This document shows, in pieces, positions 43,066 to 49,056 of a stretch of 64,000 bases of DNA. Numbering within the stretch: position 1 is the stretch's first letter; the number at the start of each line of letters is the position of its first letter. Made by a program: the position numbers and the translations under genes. This stretch comes from Legionella clemsonensis (lineage in GTDB: Bacteria; Pseudomonadota; Gammaproteobacteria; Legionellales; Legionellaceae). The notes beneath the pieces are model-generated. The model had not been told where the DNA came from and did no database searches. It saw only the letters and a list, made by a program, of their open reading frames with translations. The stretch is from positions 2,870,001 to 2,934,000 of the forward strand of contig NZ_CP016397.1 of assembly GCF_002240035.1 (NCBI RefSeq), in the 5' to 3' direction.

Positions 43066-43785
43066 ATGATTGATCTGACGATACATACACAACCTGATGA
43101 TGAAACATGCGGCCCCACCAGCCTACATGCAATTTATCGTTACTATGGTCTAAGTCTTGATTTGTCAGAAGTCATTAAAAATGTGGAGCGCTCTCTTTCA
43201 GGAGGTACCTTAGCTCCTATGTTAGGTAAACATGCACTTCTACATGGATTCCAAGTGACAATTTATATCAATAATCTCAATCTTTTTGACCCCACATGGT
43301 TTGATTTCGAACAAGGAAAGGCCTGCCAGGATCTATTGAAAATTAAGCTAAATGCACAAATGAAATATAAAAAAACAAAAGCAATTTTACAGGCAAGTCA
43401 AGCTTATCTTGATTATCTTGCACTTGGTGGTGAGGTGCGTTTTCGCACTCTGAGTGTCCAGTTGTTGAAAGATTATTTTTCGCAAAAAATTCCTATTCTC
43501 ACAGGTTTAAGTGCTACTTACCTCTACCGTAGTTCCCGTGAGCGTTATATAAAGGGTGAAGCAATTTACGATGATATTCGTGGTGAGCCTTGTGGACATT
43601 TTGTTGTTTTATGCGGTTATGATGACAAAAAACGACTTGTCGTTGTCGCTGATCCGCACCGGGAAAATCCTATTTCCCAAGACAATTATTATAAAGTAAG
43701 TAGTAATCGTTTAATTAACGCTATCATGGTAGGTGTTCTGACCTATGATGCTAATTTAATAATAATTCAACCAAAGAGTGATTAA
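43066..43785 (+). CDS. Peptidase C39-like papain-fold protein
   Basis: The 239-residue protein starts with the C39-type segment TQPDDETCGPTSLHAI: oxyanion Gln9 and nucleophile Cys15. His178 (EPCGHFVVLCGYD) and Asp196 (VVADP) complete the triad. It has no ABC transporter part and no signal peptide, so it is a stand-alone C39-like cysteine peptidase or amidase. It is followed with no gap by the ATP-grasp gene. Its role in the operon may be to cleave or transfer the product of the ligases. Confidence 0.82.
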   Translation: MIDLTIHTQPDDETCGPTSLHAIYRYYGLSLDLSEVIKNVERSLSGGTLAPMLGKHALLHGFQVTIYINNLNLFDPTWFDFEQGKACQDLLKIKLNAQMKYKKTKAILQASQAYLDYLALGGEVRFRTLSVQLLKDYFSQKIPILTGLSATYLYRSSRERYIKGEAIYDDIRGEPCGHFVVLCGYDDKKRLVVVADPHRENPISQDNYYKVSSNRLINAIMVGVLTYDANLIIIQPKSD

Positions 43786-45240
43786 ATGGAAACATTAATC
43801 GTAACGGATGATCCTTCGGGGTGGAAATTTCTAGACTCCCTTGCTGCTATTGTCAAAGCTTCAGATTATTTGTCCAGTGAAAACTATTACCAGAGTAAAT
43901 CCATTCGTGTGCTTAATCTTTGTCAATCTTATAATCATCAGACCATCGGCTATTACGTGTCTTTGCTCGCTCATGCCCGTGACCATAAAGCCATTCCTTC
44001 TGTGCACAGCATTCAAGATGCTCTTAATGCGGAGTTATCCAAGTTTATTTCTCAGGATGTCGATGAAGAAATTCAACACAGTTTACATGACATTAAAGGA
44101 GAGGAATTTGTTTTAAGCTTATATTTTGGACAAAACATGGCAAAATGTCATGCCAATCTTGCTAAAAAATTGCATGGTTTATTTCCCTTGCCACTAATGC
44201 GTTTCACGCTGGAAAAAAAGAAGCAATGGCGAATTAAAACACTTCAGGTTCTAGCATTAGCTGATGTTCCCGAACACCATAAAGCATTTATGCAGGAGGC
44301 GGCAAAAAATTATTTATCTAAAAAGCGCTTTCACCAATGGCGCAAAAAACAACGCTATCATGATCTAGCTATTTTAATTGATCCTGCTGAGCCCAACGCA
44401 CCTTCCAACAAAAAAGCCCTGGATACGTTTGCAACTACTGGAGAAGCGATGGGATTAAATGTTGATTTTATTGAAAAAAGCGACACCAAATCGCTTGCTG
44501 AATATGATGCTCTTTTTATTCGAGCGACTACTTCAGTTAATCATTACACTTATAGAATGGCAAGACGAGCAGCCCAAGAGAATTTGGTGGTTATTGATGA
44601 TCCCCAGTCCATTATAAAATGTAGCAACAAAGTTTATCTGGCTGAGCTAATGCGAAGTCATCAAATTTTAACGCCAGAAACTATTTTTATTAGCAAATAT
44701 GATAAAGAAATTCCAAACGTTGAATTTCCTTGCGTGTTAAAAAGACCTGACAGTGCCTTTTCGCACGGCGTCATTAAACTTGATAACAGTAAGGCGTTAC
44801 AAAAATCACTCACTCAATTTTTTAAAATCTCCGATTTAGTATTAGTGCAACCATTTATTCCCACAGAATATGACTGGCGCATTGGTATCCTGGATAATAA
44901 ACCAATTTTTGCCTGTCGCTATTATATGGCAAAAAATCACTGGCAAATTTATAACTGGGACGCTATTAAGGGAAAACGGGAAGGCGATACAGAGACTATT
45001 CCCTTACATGAAGTGCCGGAAGCCATCATTAAAACTGCTTTAAAATGCACGCGCTTAATTGGTGATGGCTTATACGGTGTGGATATTAAAAGCCAGGGTG
45101 ATAAACATTATGTTATCGAGGTCAACGACAATCCAAATATTGATTTTGGCATTGAAGATAAAATTTTAGGGGATTCACTTTATGAACTTGTTATGAGTGT
45201 TTTCTTGCAACGCATCCGCAGGAAACATGGCTATGTCTGA
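43786..45240 (+). CDS. RimK-like ATP-grasp amidoligase with N-terminal RLAN-type domain
   Basis: The 484-residue protein has an N-terminal domain of about 190 residues with YYVSLLAHARDHKAIPSV, like the RimK-like ATP-grasp N-terminal domain (PF14401), then an ATP-grasp with FPCVLKRPDSAFSHGVI, LVQPFIPTEYDWRIGIL and YVIEVNDNPNIDFGIED (metal-binding acidic and Asn residues). ATP-grasp enzymes of this kind join a carboxylate and an amine, often adding amino acids to a peptide. It starts right at the stop of the C39-like gene. The substrate is unknown. Confidence 0.85.
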   Translation: METLIVTDDPSGWKFLDSLAAIVKASDYLSSENYYQSKSIRVLNLCQSYNHQTIGYYVSLLAHARDHKAIPSVHSIQDALNAELSKFISQDVDEEIQHSLHDIKGEEFVLSLYFGQNMAKCHANLAKKLHGLFPLPLMRFTLEKKKQWRIKTLQVLALADVPEHHKAFMQEAAKNYLSKKRFHQWRKKQRYHDLAILIDPAEPNAPSNKKALDTFATTGEAMGLNVDFIEKSDTKSLAEYDALFIRATTSVNHYTYRMARRAAQENLVVIDDPQSIIKCSNKVYLAELMRSHQILTPETIFISKYDKEIPNVEFPCVLKRPDSAFSHGVIKLDNSKALQKSLTQFFKISDLVLVQPFIPTEYDWRIGILDNKPIFACRYYMAKNHWQIYNWDAIKGKREGDTETIPLHEVPEAIIKTALKCTRLIGDGLYGVDIKSQGDKHYVIEVNDNPNIDFGIEDKILGDSLYELVMSVFLQRIRRKHGYV

Positions 45241-46456
45241 TTATGCAATATTTTCAGTATTAGGCATTGAAATTGAATATATGCTCGTTGACTCTCAGTG
45301 CTTAAATATCCAACCTCAAAGTGATCTTATTCTTGAAGAATTGGCAGGAGAATTAGTCAACGAGGTGGCATTAGGAGACATTGCCATTAGCAATGAACTG
45401 GTACTTCATGTGCTGGAACTAAAAAATAATGGACCTAAACCACCTGATGCTTCTATTGTTCAACAATTCCAACGAGCCATTGACCACTTGCAACCCCACC
45501 TTGCTGCAAGAAATTTACAATTATTGCCAACAGGTGCTCATCCCTGGATGAATCCCTTACGAGAAACCAAGCGATGGCCCCATGGTAACAGGGACATCTA
45601 TCATCAATTTGATGCTATTTTTAATTGTCAGGGGCATGGCTGGGCCAATCTGCAAAGCATGCACGTTAATTTGCCCTTTGCCAATGATGGAGAATTTAGG
45701 CAATTACACAATGCAATTCGTTTATTGCTTCCTTTATTGCCTGCCTTGGCTGCGAGCACTCCTTTTTTAGAGGGCAAAAAAACCGGCTTAAACGATTCAC
45801 GCTTATACTTTTATGGAAAAAATCAACAAGCTATTCCATGTATCAGTGGCGATATTATTCCTGAGTTTATTGAAAGCGAACGACAGTATCGTGAACAAGT
45901 ACTGGCACCCATGTATCAAGCGATTAGTCCTTATGATCCGCAGGGAATTTTGCAACATGAATGGCTTAATTCCAGAGCGGCTATTCCAAAATTTGGATCC
46001 AAAGCCATTGAAATTCGCATTCTCGACTCCCAGGAATGTGTACAAGCAGATATAGCAATTGCCTTAGCGATTCATGCGATTTTAAAACATTGGCAAATGA
46101 CTTCATCGTATTATTTAGACAGACCCTGCGAAACCCAGCGCTTGCGAGCTGTTTACGATAAAACCATTAAGAATGGTTTGACTGTATGGATAGATGATGC
46201 AGAGTTAACCAAACAATGGCAATTGCCTCAACGTACCATGATTACCCGTACTATTTGGTCTAATTTGATTGAAAAAGTAAGCTCTACACTTGATAATTCT
46301 ACTCAGAAAACGCTGGAATTTATTTTAAGCCAGGGCAATCTAAGTGACCGCTTGCTAAATGCCTGTGGCAACGAAATTAATCAGTCAACCCTTACACGTA
46401 TTTACAGGCAGCTTTCCCACTGCTTAATGACTAATCAATTATTTAATCCAACATGA
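45233..46456 (+). CDS. GCS2-family carboxylate-amine ligase
   Basis: The protein has 407 residues. The start MSDYAIFSVLGIEIEYMLV shows the conserved glutamate-cysteine ligase type 2 metal site (GIEIEY). Later SMHVNLPFAND and IEIRILDSQE match GCS2. The family includes glutamate-cysteine ligases and carboxylate-amine ligases of unknown use. I took the ATG at 45233, which has AGGA 9 bases upstream and overlaps the ATP-grasp stop; an ATG two codons earlier is possible. It overlaps the next gene by 4 bases. Confidence 0.83.
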   Translation: MSDYAIFSVLGIEIEYMLVDSQCLNIQPQSDLILEELAGELVNEVALGDIAISNELVLHVLELKNNGPKPPDASIVQQFQRAIDHLQPHLAARNLQLLPTGAHPWMNPLRETKRWPHGNRDIYHQFDAIFNCQGHGWANLQSMHVNLPFANDGEFRQLHNAIRLLLPLLPALAASTPFLEGKKTGLNDSRLYFYGKNQQAIPCISGDIIPEFIESERQYREQVLAPMYQAISPYDPQGILQHEWLNSRAAIPKFGSKAIEIRILDSQECVQADIAIALAIHAILKHWQMTSSYYLDRPCETQRLRAVYDKTIKNGLTVWIDDAELTKQWQLPQRTMITRTIWSNLIEKVSSTLDNSTQKTLEFILSQGNLSDRLLNACGNEINQSTLTRIYRQLSHCLMTNQLFNPT

Positions 46457-47181
46457 ACACGCGTATCCTTGTGTTAAGTTGTGAACATGCGGTGAATACC
46501 GTTCCTGCAGCTTATCAAAAATATTTTATTGATCATGAAGCGTTGTTGAATACGCATCGTGGAATAGATTTTGGTGCCCTTGCGATTGCCAGACACTTAA
46601 GCAAGGCATTTGATTGTGATTTGGTACAAGCCAAAGCGACCCGATTGCTTATCGACTGCAATCGTCGCTTAACTAATCCAGCCTGTTTTTCAGAGATAAC
46701 CGCGGGATTACCTAAAGCAGAAAAGCAAGCCATCATTGAAGAATACTATCTACCTTTTCGCGAACATGTAATTAGCATCATTAGCAATTATATTGCCTTA
46801 GGTTATGAGGTGTGGCATTTTTCTATTCATAGCTTTACACCCGTTATGAATGATTTGCCGCGTAATGCCGACATTGGTTTTCTTTATGACCCTAAACGAA
46901 TCAAAGAAAGAATGTTGGCACGAGCATGGCAATCAATCCTTAAAGCCGAGACAGATCAGTTCCGTGTGCGCCTTAATTACCCCTATCTCGGAATTACCGA
47001 TGGCTTCACAAGCTTTCTCCGCAAACAATTTGATGGAGCGATGTATGTAGGTTTGGAGGTTGAAAACAACCAAGCTCTAATGGGCAATGATCACTCTCTA
47101 ATGCAAGTGGCTGAAGCATTAGTTTTAACGCTTAGACCCTTACTGGCTACTCCATACAATGTGCTATCTGCCTACAAATAG
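46453..47181 (+). CDS. N-formylglutamate amidohydrolase-like protein
   Basis: This 242-residue protein has LSCEHAVNTVPAAY at its start, THRGIDFGALAIARHL near residue 32, DCNRRL near residue 74 and a late YVGLEVENNQ segment, all features of the HutG/FGase family of zinc amidohydrolases. It overlaps the GCS2 gene by 4 bases (ATGA) and ends the operon. In this setting it more likely trims an amide of the operon's product than takes part in histidine breakdown, as no hut genes are near. Confidence 0.83.
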   Translation: MNTRILVLSCEHAVNTVPAAYQKYFIDHEALLNTHRGIDFGALAIARHLSKAFDCDLVQAKATRLLIDCNRRLTNPACFSEITAGLPKAEKQAIIEEYYLPFREHVISIISNYIALGYEVWHFSIHSFTPVMNDLPRNADIGFLYDPKRIKERMLARAWQSILKAETDQFRVRLNYPYLGITDGFTSFLRKQFDGAMYVGLEVENNQALMGNDHSLMQVAEALVLTLRPLLATPYNVLSAYK

Positions 47182-47204
47182 TTAACCAGTCCCTCCTTAA
47201 AATT

Positions 47205-47336
47205 CAGTATCGGCAGTAGCTTGTTGCCAGATGCCTTTTATAACCTTCGAAGCACATGGATGTGCTTCGAGAGCGCCAGGAAGGCTTCATGCGTTTACAA
47301 AAGGCATCTCGCAACAAGCCATTGCCGCTATCGGTG
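47205..47336. repeat. Large imperfect inverted repeat
   Basis: TAGCTTGTTGCCAGATGCC (47217-47235) matches the reverse complement of 47302-47320 with two mismatches, and the pairing extends outward through TATCGG-type ends. Between the arms lies a second hairpin, CGAAGCACATGGATGTGCTTCG. No open frame is present. It could be a non-autonomous mobile element or a strong terminator region between the two convergent operons. Confidence 0.6.
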
Positions 47337-47360
47337 GAAATAAGCGAAAATTCCTGTAGC

Positions 47361-48875
47361 TTAACGTTTTCGCTTAACACCTAGAGCAGACATAACCGCA
47401 CGCATCAGATCACGCATAATTTGTCTTATTATTTGACGAAATAATGTGTTTTTAGTAATTTGTTCAACCACTGAAGGCTCTTCTTTTGTCTTTTTAGTTT
47501 TTGCCTGGGCAGGTGATACTTGCTGATTACTGATAGCAGTCCTGGTGGCTAAAATTTCCTTTGCTGAATGTGGTTCTTGCCGTTGTTCGTATTTTGGCAG
47601 CAAGGTCGAGGTTGTAATGGCCTGATTTAACTCTTGTTCATTAAGCACTCCCATACGCGACTCTGGTGCTCGCACCAGACACTCAATCAATGGCGTTGGT
47701 TGACCCTCTGCATCTAAGGCACTTACCAAAGCTTCTCCTATTGCCAGAGAAGTTAATATCTGTTCTGTTTGGTAGTATTTAGATGGAGGAAAATTTTGTG
47801 CTACCAGTTTCATTGCTTTGCGATCTTTTGCGGTAAATGCACGCAAAGCATGTTGAATTTTTAAGCCTAGCTGACTTAACACTGAATCCGGCACATCATT
47901 GGGTGTTTGTGTGCAAAAAATTAAACCAATACCCTTTGAACGAATTAATTTAACCATCGTATTCAATAAATTGAGCAAGGCTTTGCTGGCATTACTAAAG
48001 ATTAAGTGCGCTTCGTCAATGAATAACACTAGTTTTGGTTTGGGTGGGTCTCCTAATTCCGGCATCAAACGATAAACATCCGATAGTAATTTAAGCATGA
48101 ATGTGGAGAATAGCTTGGGCTTATCTTGCATGTCACTTAGACGTAGTATAGAAATTATTCCCATACCCTCTGAGTTGGTGCGCACCAGATCCAATACATT
48201 AAACGAAGGTTCACCAAAAAATTGACTACCTCCTTGGGCTTCAAGTTCAATAATTTTACGTACAATAGTACCTACTGAAGCGCTTGCCACCCCACCAAAC
48301 TGGCCTTCTATCTCTTCTTTACCCGCATCAGTTTGCACAAACTGCAATAGAGACTTCATGTCAGCCAAATCAATTAAGGGTAAATTTTTGCTTTTTGCAT
48401 ATTCAAAAAGAATAGTAATAACACCCTCTTGTGTTTCATTTAAGTCCAACATTCGTGAAAAAAGAAGTGGACCAAACTCTGTGACGGTAGAACGTAAGGG
48501 AACTCCCTCATGTGAATCACTTAAAGTGAGCATTTCCACTGGGAAGGCGCGCGGTGTATAAGTCAGATTGAGTGATTGACTGCGCGCGATCAGCGTATCA
48601 GTGGCTTCACCAGGTACAGCTAATCCTGAAACATCCCCTTTAATATCCATAACCAGACTAGGCACACCCGCTAAAGACAACTGCTCACTCAAAACTTGCA
48701 TGGTTTTGGTTTTACCACTACCCGTGGCACCTGCAATTAAACCATGGCGGTTCAGTGATTTGAGCACTAAATTAACGGGCGCATCGGGGAGTAAATGCTC
48801 ATCCACTAAGATGCCACCTAACTGCAACATAGGGAGCCCAGAAGCCCGATAAGGAGCAATTAAATCTTCATACAT
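47361..48875 (-). CDS. HerA-like ATPase (DUF853 family)
   Basis: The 504-residue protein from the Met at 48875 (MYEDLIAPYR) has Walker A GATGSGKT near residue 48, Walker B LVLFIDEAH, and a C-terminal basic tail (ALGVKRKR). It is related to Escherichia coli YjgR and to archaeal HerA hexameric DNA translocases. Its cell role is not settled. The open frame extends 32 codons further upstream, including another ATG at 48890. None of these has a strong ribosome site, so the start is uncertain. Confidence 0.85.
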   Translation of the reverse strand: MYEDLIAPYRASGLPMLQLGGILVDEHLLPDAPVNLVLKSLNRHGLIAGATGSGKTKTMQVLSEQLSLAGVPSLVMDIKGDVSGLAVPGEATDTLIARSQSLNLTYTPRAFPVEMLTLSDSHEGVPLRSTVTEFGPLLFSRMLDLNETQEGVITILFEYAKSKNLPLIDLADMKSLLQFVQTDAGKEEIEGQFGGVASASVGTIVRKIIELEAQGGSQFFGEPSFNVLDLVRTNSEGMGIISILRLSDMQDKPKLFSTFMLKLLSDVYRLMPELGDPPKPKLVLFIDEAHLIFSNASKALLNLLNTMVKLIRSKGIGLIFCTQTPNDVPDSVLSQLGLKIQHALRAFTAKDRKAMKLVAQNFPPSKYYQTEQILTSLAIGEALVSALDAEGQPTPLIECLVRAPESRMGVLNEQELNQAITTSTLLPKYEQRQEPHSAKEILATRTAISNQQVSPAQAKTKKTKEEPSVVEQITKNTLFRQIIRQIMRDLMRAVMSALGVKRKR

Positions 48876-49056
48876 AAAAATAACATCCATGTTAGGGAGG
48901 GATAACTTGATTATAGTGAAGTACTCACAAAATTTACATGGGTATTTAATGTAACATTGCGTAATGAGCACTCACCGGAAACGATCATCCAATCATTTAA
49001 GATTCGTTTCTTATAAAATTTATCGACCACTATACCATCTCAAAATTAAGAGTAAC

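What the first reader, a model, noticed from the sequence alone, without database searches (positions are those of the whole stretch)
43066..47181. Four-gene amidoligase operon (C39 peptidase, RimK-like ATP-grasp, GCS2 ligase, FGase-like)
Four genes abut or overlap in one direction: a stand-alone C39-like papain-fold protein, an ATP-grasp with an RLAN-type N-terminus, a GCS2 carboxylate-amine ligase and an N-formylglutamate amidohydrolase-like enzyme. Two different amide-forming enzymes with two amide-breaking enzymes point to synthesis and trimming of an unknown peptide-like metabolite or a protein modification. Comparative work has described amidoligase clusters of this general kind, but I know of no product.
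Basis: partly seen in the sequence, partly recalled or inferred. Interest (0 to 1): 0.75.

Follow-up and report, generated by a model that had tools for sequence, protein, structure and literature searches.

The report
Widespread two-ligase peptide operon, product unknown
Four adjacent bacterial genes form a compact enzyme set, also found in many unrelated bacteria, that probably joins amino acids into a small capped peptide that has not been identified.

Summary
Confirmed: four same-strand genes abut or overlap (43066-47181) and match Pfam C39, RLAN+RimK ATP-grasp, GCS2 and FGase, with conserved putative catalytic residues. The set is not a Legionella oddity: of the 80 loci kept from a GCS2-profile scan, 54 have all four in this order, across several phyla.

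Main new result, a partner rule: nearly every RLAN ligase has one N-acylating partner, a GNAT acyltransferase or this GCS2. In 369 gammaproteobacteria RLAN occurs in 81 and this GCS2 in 17, all RLAN-positive; in 178 Bacteroidota, 20 and 14, all RLAN-positive. Of 206 ligases mapped, 102 have GNAT, 98 GCS2, none both by my thresholds, 6 neither adjacent; one GCS2 locus has a different GNAT-domain protein upstream. C39 and FGase are accessories.

Best reading: a small N-capped peptide made by RLAN plus GCS2 (gamma-glutamyl-type cap) or GNAT (acyl cap), trimmed or recycled by C39 and FGase. Product unknown. Such clusters were predicted in 2009 (paper not held). Structure prediction never ran.

The parts
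43066..43785 (+). C39/papain-fold thiol hydrolase, 239 aa, stand-alone (no transporter). Q9, C15, H178, D196 invariant in 41 sequences.
43786..45240 (+). RLAN domain + RimK-like ATP-grasp ligase, 484 aa. K282, K319, R365, D433, E445, N447 invariant in 55 sequences.
45233..46456 (+). GCS2 carboxylate-amine ligase, 407 aa (start refined from GTG 45197 to ATG 45233 by orthologues).
46453..47181 (+). FGase (N-formylglutamate amidohydrolase-like) putative metal hydrolase, 242 aa; E11, H12, H122, H126, E202 invariant in 13 sequences.

Best explanation
The operon makes, and probably also turns over, a small non-ribosomal N-capped peptide. Inferred steps: (1) the RLAN ATP-grasp ligase activates an acceptor carboxylate as acyl phosphate and joins it to the amine of an amino acid, as RimK and LysX do; (2) the GCS2 ligase caps the free amine through an acyl phosphate, most likely with a gamma-glutamyl-type group; (3) the FGase-like enzyme hydrolyses an N-acyl-glutamate-type bond and the C39 thiol hydrolase cleaves or transfers the peptide, so both trim or recycle. 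In sister systems a GNAT supplies the cap from an acyl-CoA, as in synthesis of the osmoprotectant dipeptide N-acetylglutaminylglutamine amide. Shown here: the gene set, conserved putative catalytic residues, the partner rule and genome-wide co-occurrence. Inferred: substrates, order of steps, the identity of the cap, and that the product is a small molecule.
For: Partner rule: GNAT 102, GCS2 98, both 0, neither 6 of 206 ligases (thresholds GNAT 85 bits, GCS2 200 bits, within 4.5 kb; many of the GCS2 rows come from loci selected by GCS2). All 17 GCS2-positive of 369 gammaproteobacteria are RLAN-positive, 0 of 288 RLAN-negative genomes have it (Fisher 1.5e-12, not corrected for kinship); Bacteroidota 14 of 14 (1.8e-16). 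In G148 GCS2 and FGase lie away from RLAN yet are kept. GNAT is fused to RLAN in one polypeptide in 5 of 6 GCS2-less Bacteroidota loci, and to C39 in the sixth and in a scanned gammaproteobacterial protein. One locus has a GNAT of another Pfam family beside RLAN (L140). The ATP-grasp half is nearest, among solved structures, to RimK and LysX. [quoted passage not shown] Precedent: Ngg does N-acetylation and peptide ligation, in an operon with a peptidase (PMC8070244, passages).
Against: No product, substrate or phenotype is known. The partner label changes only twice on the 206-row tree and perhaps once (AU p 0.525), so the exchange is few events and functional equivalence is inference. One GCS2-type locus (L119) has a GNAT-nitrilase fusion directly upstream of C39 on the same strand (only 38 bits to the sister GNAT profile), so exclusivity is not absolute; three more GCS2 loci have weak GNAT matches (37-70 bits) at some distance. 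L109 has an RLAN with no partner seen. Two of 80 GCS2 loci have no RLAN nearby (L154, L201); two Bacteroidota have the FGase without RLAN. C39 nearest solved relatives are peptide-processing transporter peptidases, which would fit a ribosomal peptide or protein substrate. GCS2 specificity for glutamate was not tested.
Confidence: 0.45

Rival explanations
1. Protein or peptide tagging: RLAN adds amino acids to the C-terminus or a side chain of a protein as RimK does to ribosomal protein S6, GCS2 or GNAT caps the tag, and C39 and FGase remove it.
For: The ATP-grasp half is nearest to RimK; the two sister GNATs scanned have RimI, a ribosomal-protein acetyltransferase model, as best NCBIfam match, below its cut-off; C39 peptidases in transporters remove leaders (PMC10318531, passage); DUF155/RMND1 proteins recur nearby in 24 of 211 RLAN loci held.
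Against: No target gene is constant: outside the core genes and Legionella-lineage synteny no neighbour cluster reached more than 5 of 80 loci. RimK-family cut-off not reached (64 of 143.4 bits).
Confidence: 0.22
2. Protecting-group pathway as in butirosin (pathway recalled): gamma-glutamylation by GCS2 masks an amine while RLAN ligates, C39 acts as a BtrH-like acyltransferase, FGase takes the mask off.
For: BtrH_N proteins are called closely related to C39 (PMC10318531, passage); FGase is an N-acyl-glutamate-type hydrolase family.
Against: BtrH_N match is weak (14.4 of 29.7 bits); FGase is missing from 6 of 14 Bacteroidota that keep RLAN and GCS2; no tailoring gene recurs in more than 5 of 80 loci (ORFs under 80 aa, such as a carrier protein, were not tested).
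Confidence: 0.15
3. Degradative or salvage unit: ligases are secondary and the set processes imported or cell-wall peptides.
For: Two hydrolases in the operon; M14, M20 and DUF2817 proteins recur beside the GNAT type.
Against: No transporter recurs with the unit at the level tested; the hydrolases, not the ligases, are the parts that go missing.
Confidence: 0.07
4. Four unrelated enzymes of known pathways (glutathione, histidine) that happen to be adjacent.
For: Generic family names.
Against: Order kept across phyla, co-occurrence, a true GshB elsewhere, scores far under the curated cut-offs for glutathione synthase and GshA models.
Confidence: 0.02

Closest known systems
Amidoligase clusters predicted by Iyer, Abhiman, Burroughs and Aravind 2009 (cited in PMC4431377 and PMC10318531, passages; the paper itself is not held)
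   Same: Operonic linkage of ATP-grasp ligases with COOH-NH2 ligases or GNATs (passage); DUF3335-GNAT fusions mentioned with that citation (passage).
   Different: I could not check whether that paper lists the C39-RLAN-GCS2-FGase order or the GNAT/GCS2 alternation. That it named the RLAN domain is recalled.
NAGGN synthesis trio (Ngg, AsnO, peptidase)
   Same: N-acylating and peptide-ligating activity plus a peptidase in one operon (PMC8070244, passages).
   Different: TIGR03103 is not listed for the window ligase; for a GNAT-C39 protein of the sister type it matched only the GNAT part, 25.4 of 569 bits. No amidotransferase was seen among recurrent neighbours.
RimK / LysX / MptN ATP-grasp ligases
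   Same: ATP-grasp half alignable, with the GVD and EVNxxP stretches.
   Different: Extra N-terminal RLAN domain; below the cut-off of every NCBIfam model listed.
Butirosin side-chain pathway (BtrJ, BtrH, BtrG; recalled)
   Same: ATP-grasp plus papain-fold enzyme plus glutamyl-bond breakage.
   Different: BtrH_N below cut-off.

Membership tests
RLAN-type ATP-grasp amidoligase | RLAN domain over Pfam cut-off, followed by RimK-like ATP-grasp | tested here: met
   154 vs 25 bits and 37.4 vs 21 bits
RLAN-type ATP-grasp amidoligase | linked N-acylating partner (GNAT or GCS2); a rule found here, not a published definition | tested here: met
   GCS2 overlaps the RLAN gene; 200 of 206 ligases have one within 4.5 kb, and L129 has it elsewhere in its genome
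RimK alpha-L-glutamate ligase (TIGR00768) | curated score cut-off | tested here: not met
   64 vs 143.4 bits
Glutathione synthesis | GshB model cut-off | tested here: not met
   22.8 vs 299.05 bits for the window ligase; true GshB at another place, 420.5 bits
GCS2 superfamily | Pfam PF04107 cut-off | tested here: met
   94.1 vs 21 bits
YbdK / GshA / EgtA subfamilies of GCS2 | NCBIfam cut-offs | tested here: not met
   best 62.1 vs 176.4 bits
HutG N-formylglutamate deformylase | an NCBIfam match (that the library holds a HutG model is recalled) | tested here: inconclusive
   no NCBIfam family at E up to 0.1, though Pfam FGase is met, 69.1 vs 28.9 bits
C39 peptidase fold | Pfam cut-off and Gln/Cys/His/Asp residues | tested here: met
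   38.2 vs 24 bits; Q9, C15, H178, D196 invariant in 41; residue roles recalled
C39 bacteriocin-processing transporter | fused ABC transporter | tested here: not met
   stand-alone 239 aa protein
NAGGN synthetase (TIGR03103) | model match over cut-off | tested here: not met
   not among the 23 models listed for the window ligase
BtrH acyltransferase | PF14399 cut-off | tested here: not met
   14.4 vs 29.7 bits
Any of the above | substrate and product | not testable with these tools
   needs biochemistry

The most novel reading that the evidence does not exclude
A previously unrecognised, broadly distributed intracellular peptide metabolite is built by one constant ligase (RLAN) and capped by one of two interchangeable, unrelated chemistries: acyl-CoA transfer (GNAT) or ATP-driven ligation (GCS2). 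The operon in the window is the GCS2 form, with its own decapping hydrolases, and the product plays a solute-, redox- or signal-like housekeeping role.
Probability: 0.3. Interest if true: 0.82.

Novelty: new variant of a known kind. Interest (0 to 1): 0.6.

Why it matters
By their titles the 80 include Pseudomonadota, Bacteroidota, Planctomycetota, Acidobacteriota, Myxococcota, Verrucomicrobiota and others; many are metagenome bins whose names can be wrong (two are titled Klebsiella pneumoniae). I found no account of this gene set in the held library. The partner rule turns 'two ligases and two hydrolases' into a testable claim: a GNAT form and a GCS2 form should make the same backbone with different caps. 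A minimal set (RLAN+GCS2, or one GNAT-RLAN fusion protein) makes the chemistry accessible in a harmless host.

Tried and rejected
Glutathione or histidine pathway membership: rejected for glutathione by cut-offs and by the separate GshB; for histidine only the lack of an NCBIfam match speaks. Anti-phage defence: no PADLOC model at E up to 0.01 for the four proteins. A precursor peptide, transporter or regulator travelling with the operon: clustering of ORFs of 80 aa or more within 4.5 kb in 80 loci gave, outside the core and Legionella-lineage synteny, no cluster in more than 5 loci; shorter ORFs were not tested. The idea that the Bacteroidota GNAT fusions arose inside the GCS2 clade and prove a second independent swap: the quick tree shows it but the AU test does not reject the alternative (p 0.525), and the GNAT tree is uninformative (p 0.749), so I do not claim it. 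Structure prediction of the RLAN ligase and C39 never ran, so no fold search was made. Literature: nine of ten searches used. One search listed one paper with the letters RLAN (on GADL1) and one on Laribacter; neither was opened. PMC9756463 lists a RimK family protein next to a GNAT in a fosmid table (passage), with no function given there. The 2009 survey is not held.

Rows dropped before counts: L116, L138 and L143 from the 78-row tree (fragments). In one search, rows whose RLAN and ATP-grasp parts were not in one frame or were under 400 aa; 211 of the 218 loci used in scripts have an RLAN match and 206 entered the tree. L142, L137, L139 and L260 were left out of the choice for the 74-row tree because of long branches. 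The 80 loci were selected by GCS2, so their GCS2 share is not a frequency. From I fetched 31 of the 37 other-class RLAN genomes and 9 loci from 8 of the same-class ones.

Full report
What is there. Four + strand genes lie within 4.1 kb: C39 (43066-43785), RLAN-RimK (43786-45240), GCS2 (ATG 45233, or mechanically GTG 45197, to 46456) and FGase (46453-47181), with gaps of 0, -8 and -4 bp. Pfam assigns all four above gathering scores. The gene upstream (GT87 family) ends 110 bp before; the gene downstream (HerA-like, 47361-48971) is convergent. Promoter- and terminator-like sites inside the unit are no more than in shuffles, and none of the three terminator-like sites is on the + strand. The nearest named relative is Legionella brunensis.

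Active or decayed. The C39 residues Q9, C15, H178 and D196 are invariant in 41 sequences; the ligase keeps K282, K319, R365, D433, E445 and N447 in 55 sequences, whose GVD and EVN stretches align with RimK-like structures; GCS2 E13, E15 and E62 are invariant in 14; FGase E11, H12, H122, H126 and E202 in 13. The roles of these residues are recalled family knowledge. In the window's family the ligase gave strong matches in 29 of 35 genomes (22 of 22 of the genus, in pieces in G016; 7 of 13 others, my count), at 67-96% identity outside the own genome where whole.

How far it goes. PF14401 (RLAN) occurs in 81 of 369 gammaproteobacterial genomes and 0 of 14 controls, 72 of 398 genomes sampled from the phylum and 20 of 178 Bacteroidota. 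Of the best 80, 77 have an RLAN match and one more (L156, cut by the contig end) has the ATP-grasp part; L154 and L201 have neither. C39 is found in 60, FGase in 72, and all four in the window's order in 54, in two of which the FGase lies several kb downstream (my count from its tally).

The partner rule. Around the 81 gammaproteobacterial RLAN genes, 59 have a GNAT beside them (52 with C39 detected too; the one such protein scanned is a GNAT-DUF3335 fusion), 15 have GCS2, 2 have stand-alone C39 only, and 5 have none by these thresholds. The two C39-only genomes (G148, G147) do have the GCS2 on another contig; in G148 FGase sits beside it (L267). Of the five 'none', L070 and L101 lie at contig ends, L143 is in pieces with a GNAT match of 107 bits just under my threshold, L140 has a GNAT of another Pfam family next to it (Acetyltransf_3, 8.1e-17), and L109 is unexplained. 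Against the rule, L119 (GCS2 type) has a 518-aa GNAT plus carbon-nitrogen hydrolase protein just upstream of C39 on the same strand; it scores 38 bits against the sister GNAT profile, whose partners score 93 or more in the rows labelled GNAT. Forty further loci from the phylum sample (31 of 37 other-class genomes and 9 loci of 8 same-class genomes): GNAT in 39, one cut by the contig end, GCS2 in none.

Genome-wide. The GCS2 profile finds 17 of the same 369 genomes at E 1e-20 or better, all among the 81 RLAN-positive ones (Fisher p 1.5e-12). In Bacteroidota, 34 of 178 have some match at E 0.001; 14 exceed 500 bits and all 14 are RLAN-positive, while the other genomes' matches are under 35 bits and were taken as other GCS2 families (p 1.8e-16 for the 14). 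Of the six RLAN-positive genomes without a strong match, five encode a single GNAT-RLAN-ATP-grasp polypeptide and one a GNAT-C39 gene next to RLAN and ATP-grasp pieces. Eight of the 14 GCS2-type loci were inspected and none shows a GNAT partner. The GNAT-C39 protein has no full-length match in 17 GCS2-type genomes, where only partial matches up to 45 bits appear; the positive control G161 gives 853 bits. These p-values ignore kinship.

Evolution. In gammaproteobacteria the GCS2 type and L129 form one well supported clade. On 206 ligases GNAT has 102, GCS2 98, both 0, neither 6, with two changes. Four Bacteroidota GNAT fusions fall on the GCS2 side of a long supported branch, but whether they lie inside or beside the GCS2 group is not settled.

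Accessories. Of 16 genomes searched, chosen mostly because no C39 was seen at their loci, six have a strong C39 match and ten do not; weak partial matches under 27 bits lie in long other frames. FGase is strong in 8 of the 14 GCS2-positive Bacteroidota and in two RLAN-negative ones, where it sits among unlike neighbours. One 1.3-Mb genome has RLAN and GCS2 without C39 or FGase in its 16-kb stretch (L098). The ligases are the core, the hydrolases optional.

Mechanism. RimK-like enzymes join an amino acid's amine to an acceptor carboxylate; GCS2 enzymes make gamma-glutamyl amides; GNATs acylate amines (family knowledge). An enzyme that acylates amines by either chemistry, paired with the same peptide ligase, is best read as a capping step on a common backbone. 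A published passage says that such linked ligases often catalyse successive ligations (PMC4431377). NAGGN synthesis is the nearest worked example: Ngg acetylates glutamine and joins a second glutamine, in an operon with a peptidase (PMC8070244, passages). A review links DUF3335-GNAT fusions to the 2009 amidoligase survey (PMC10318531, passage). Metabolite rather than protein is favoured because no candidate target gene is constant near the unit, but this is inference, and I give it 0.45.

Novelty. The kind (predicted amidoligase clusters) is known; product and mechanism are not known to me. Searches of the held library for RLAN, for the gene set and for its Pfam numbers found nothing beyond the citations above (listings, with passages of five papers read). 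The 2009 survey was not readable, so it may already list this arrangement.

Noticed in passing
47200-47352, between FGase and the convergent HerA-like gene: A 36-nt inverted repeat (86% complementary, 51 nt apart) predicts a very stable hairpin (-65.4 kcal/mol, z -7.1). BLAST finds no other copy in the window or in the fetched loci; terminator for both sides or small mobile element possible.
   Followed up: partly
24 RLAN loci of both types, e.g. L084:6078-6869, L283:4630-5415: DUF155 (RMND1/Sif2-Sif3/Mrx10) proteins recur near RLAN in 24 of 211 loci, 17 with GNAT and 6 with GCS2 partners; distances run to 7 kb. A functional link is possible and unexplained.
   Followed up: partly
19 loci, e.g. 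L073:6036-7148: DUF2817 proteins lie near RLAN in 18 GNAT-type loci and one cut by a contig end, in none of the GCS2 type; M14 in 6 and M20 (ArgE-like) in 20 loci. They may stand in for the FGase and C39 hydrolases.
   Followed up: partly
L119:8845-10398: A GNAT plus carbon-nitrogen hydrolase fusion directly upstream of the C39 gene of a GCS2-type operon, the one exception to the either/or rule seen close by.
   Followed up: partly
L140:5002-5520: A GNAT of a different Pfam family (Acetyltransf_3) sits directly upstream of RLAN in place of the usual GNAT.
   Followed up: partly
G447, G451, G530: Three genomes of one unnamed genus carry two RLAN matches each, where the other listed genomes have one.
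   Followed up: no
L109, L154, L201: An RLAN without a visible partner (L109) and two GCS2 loci without RLAN nearby.
   Followed up: partly
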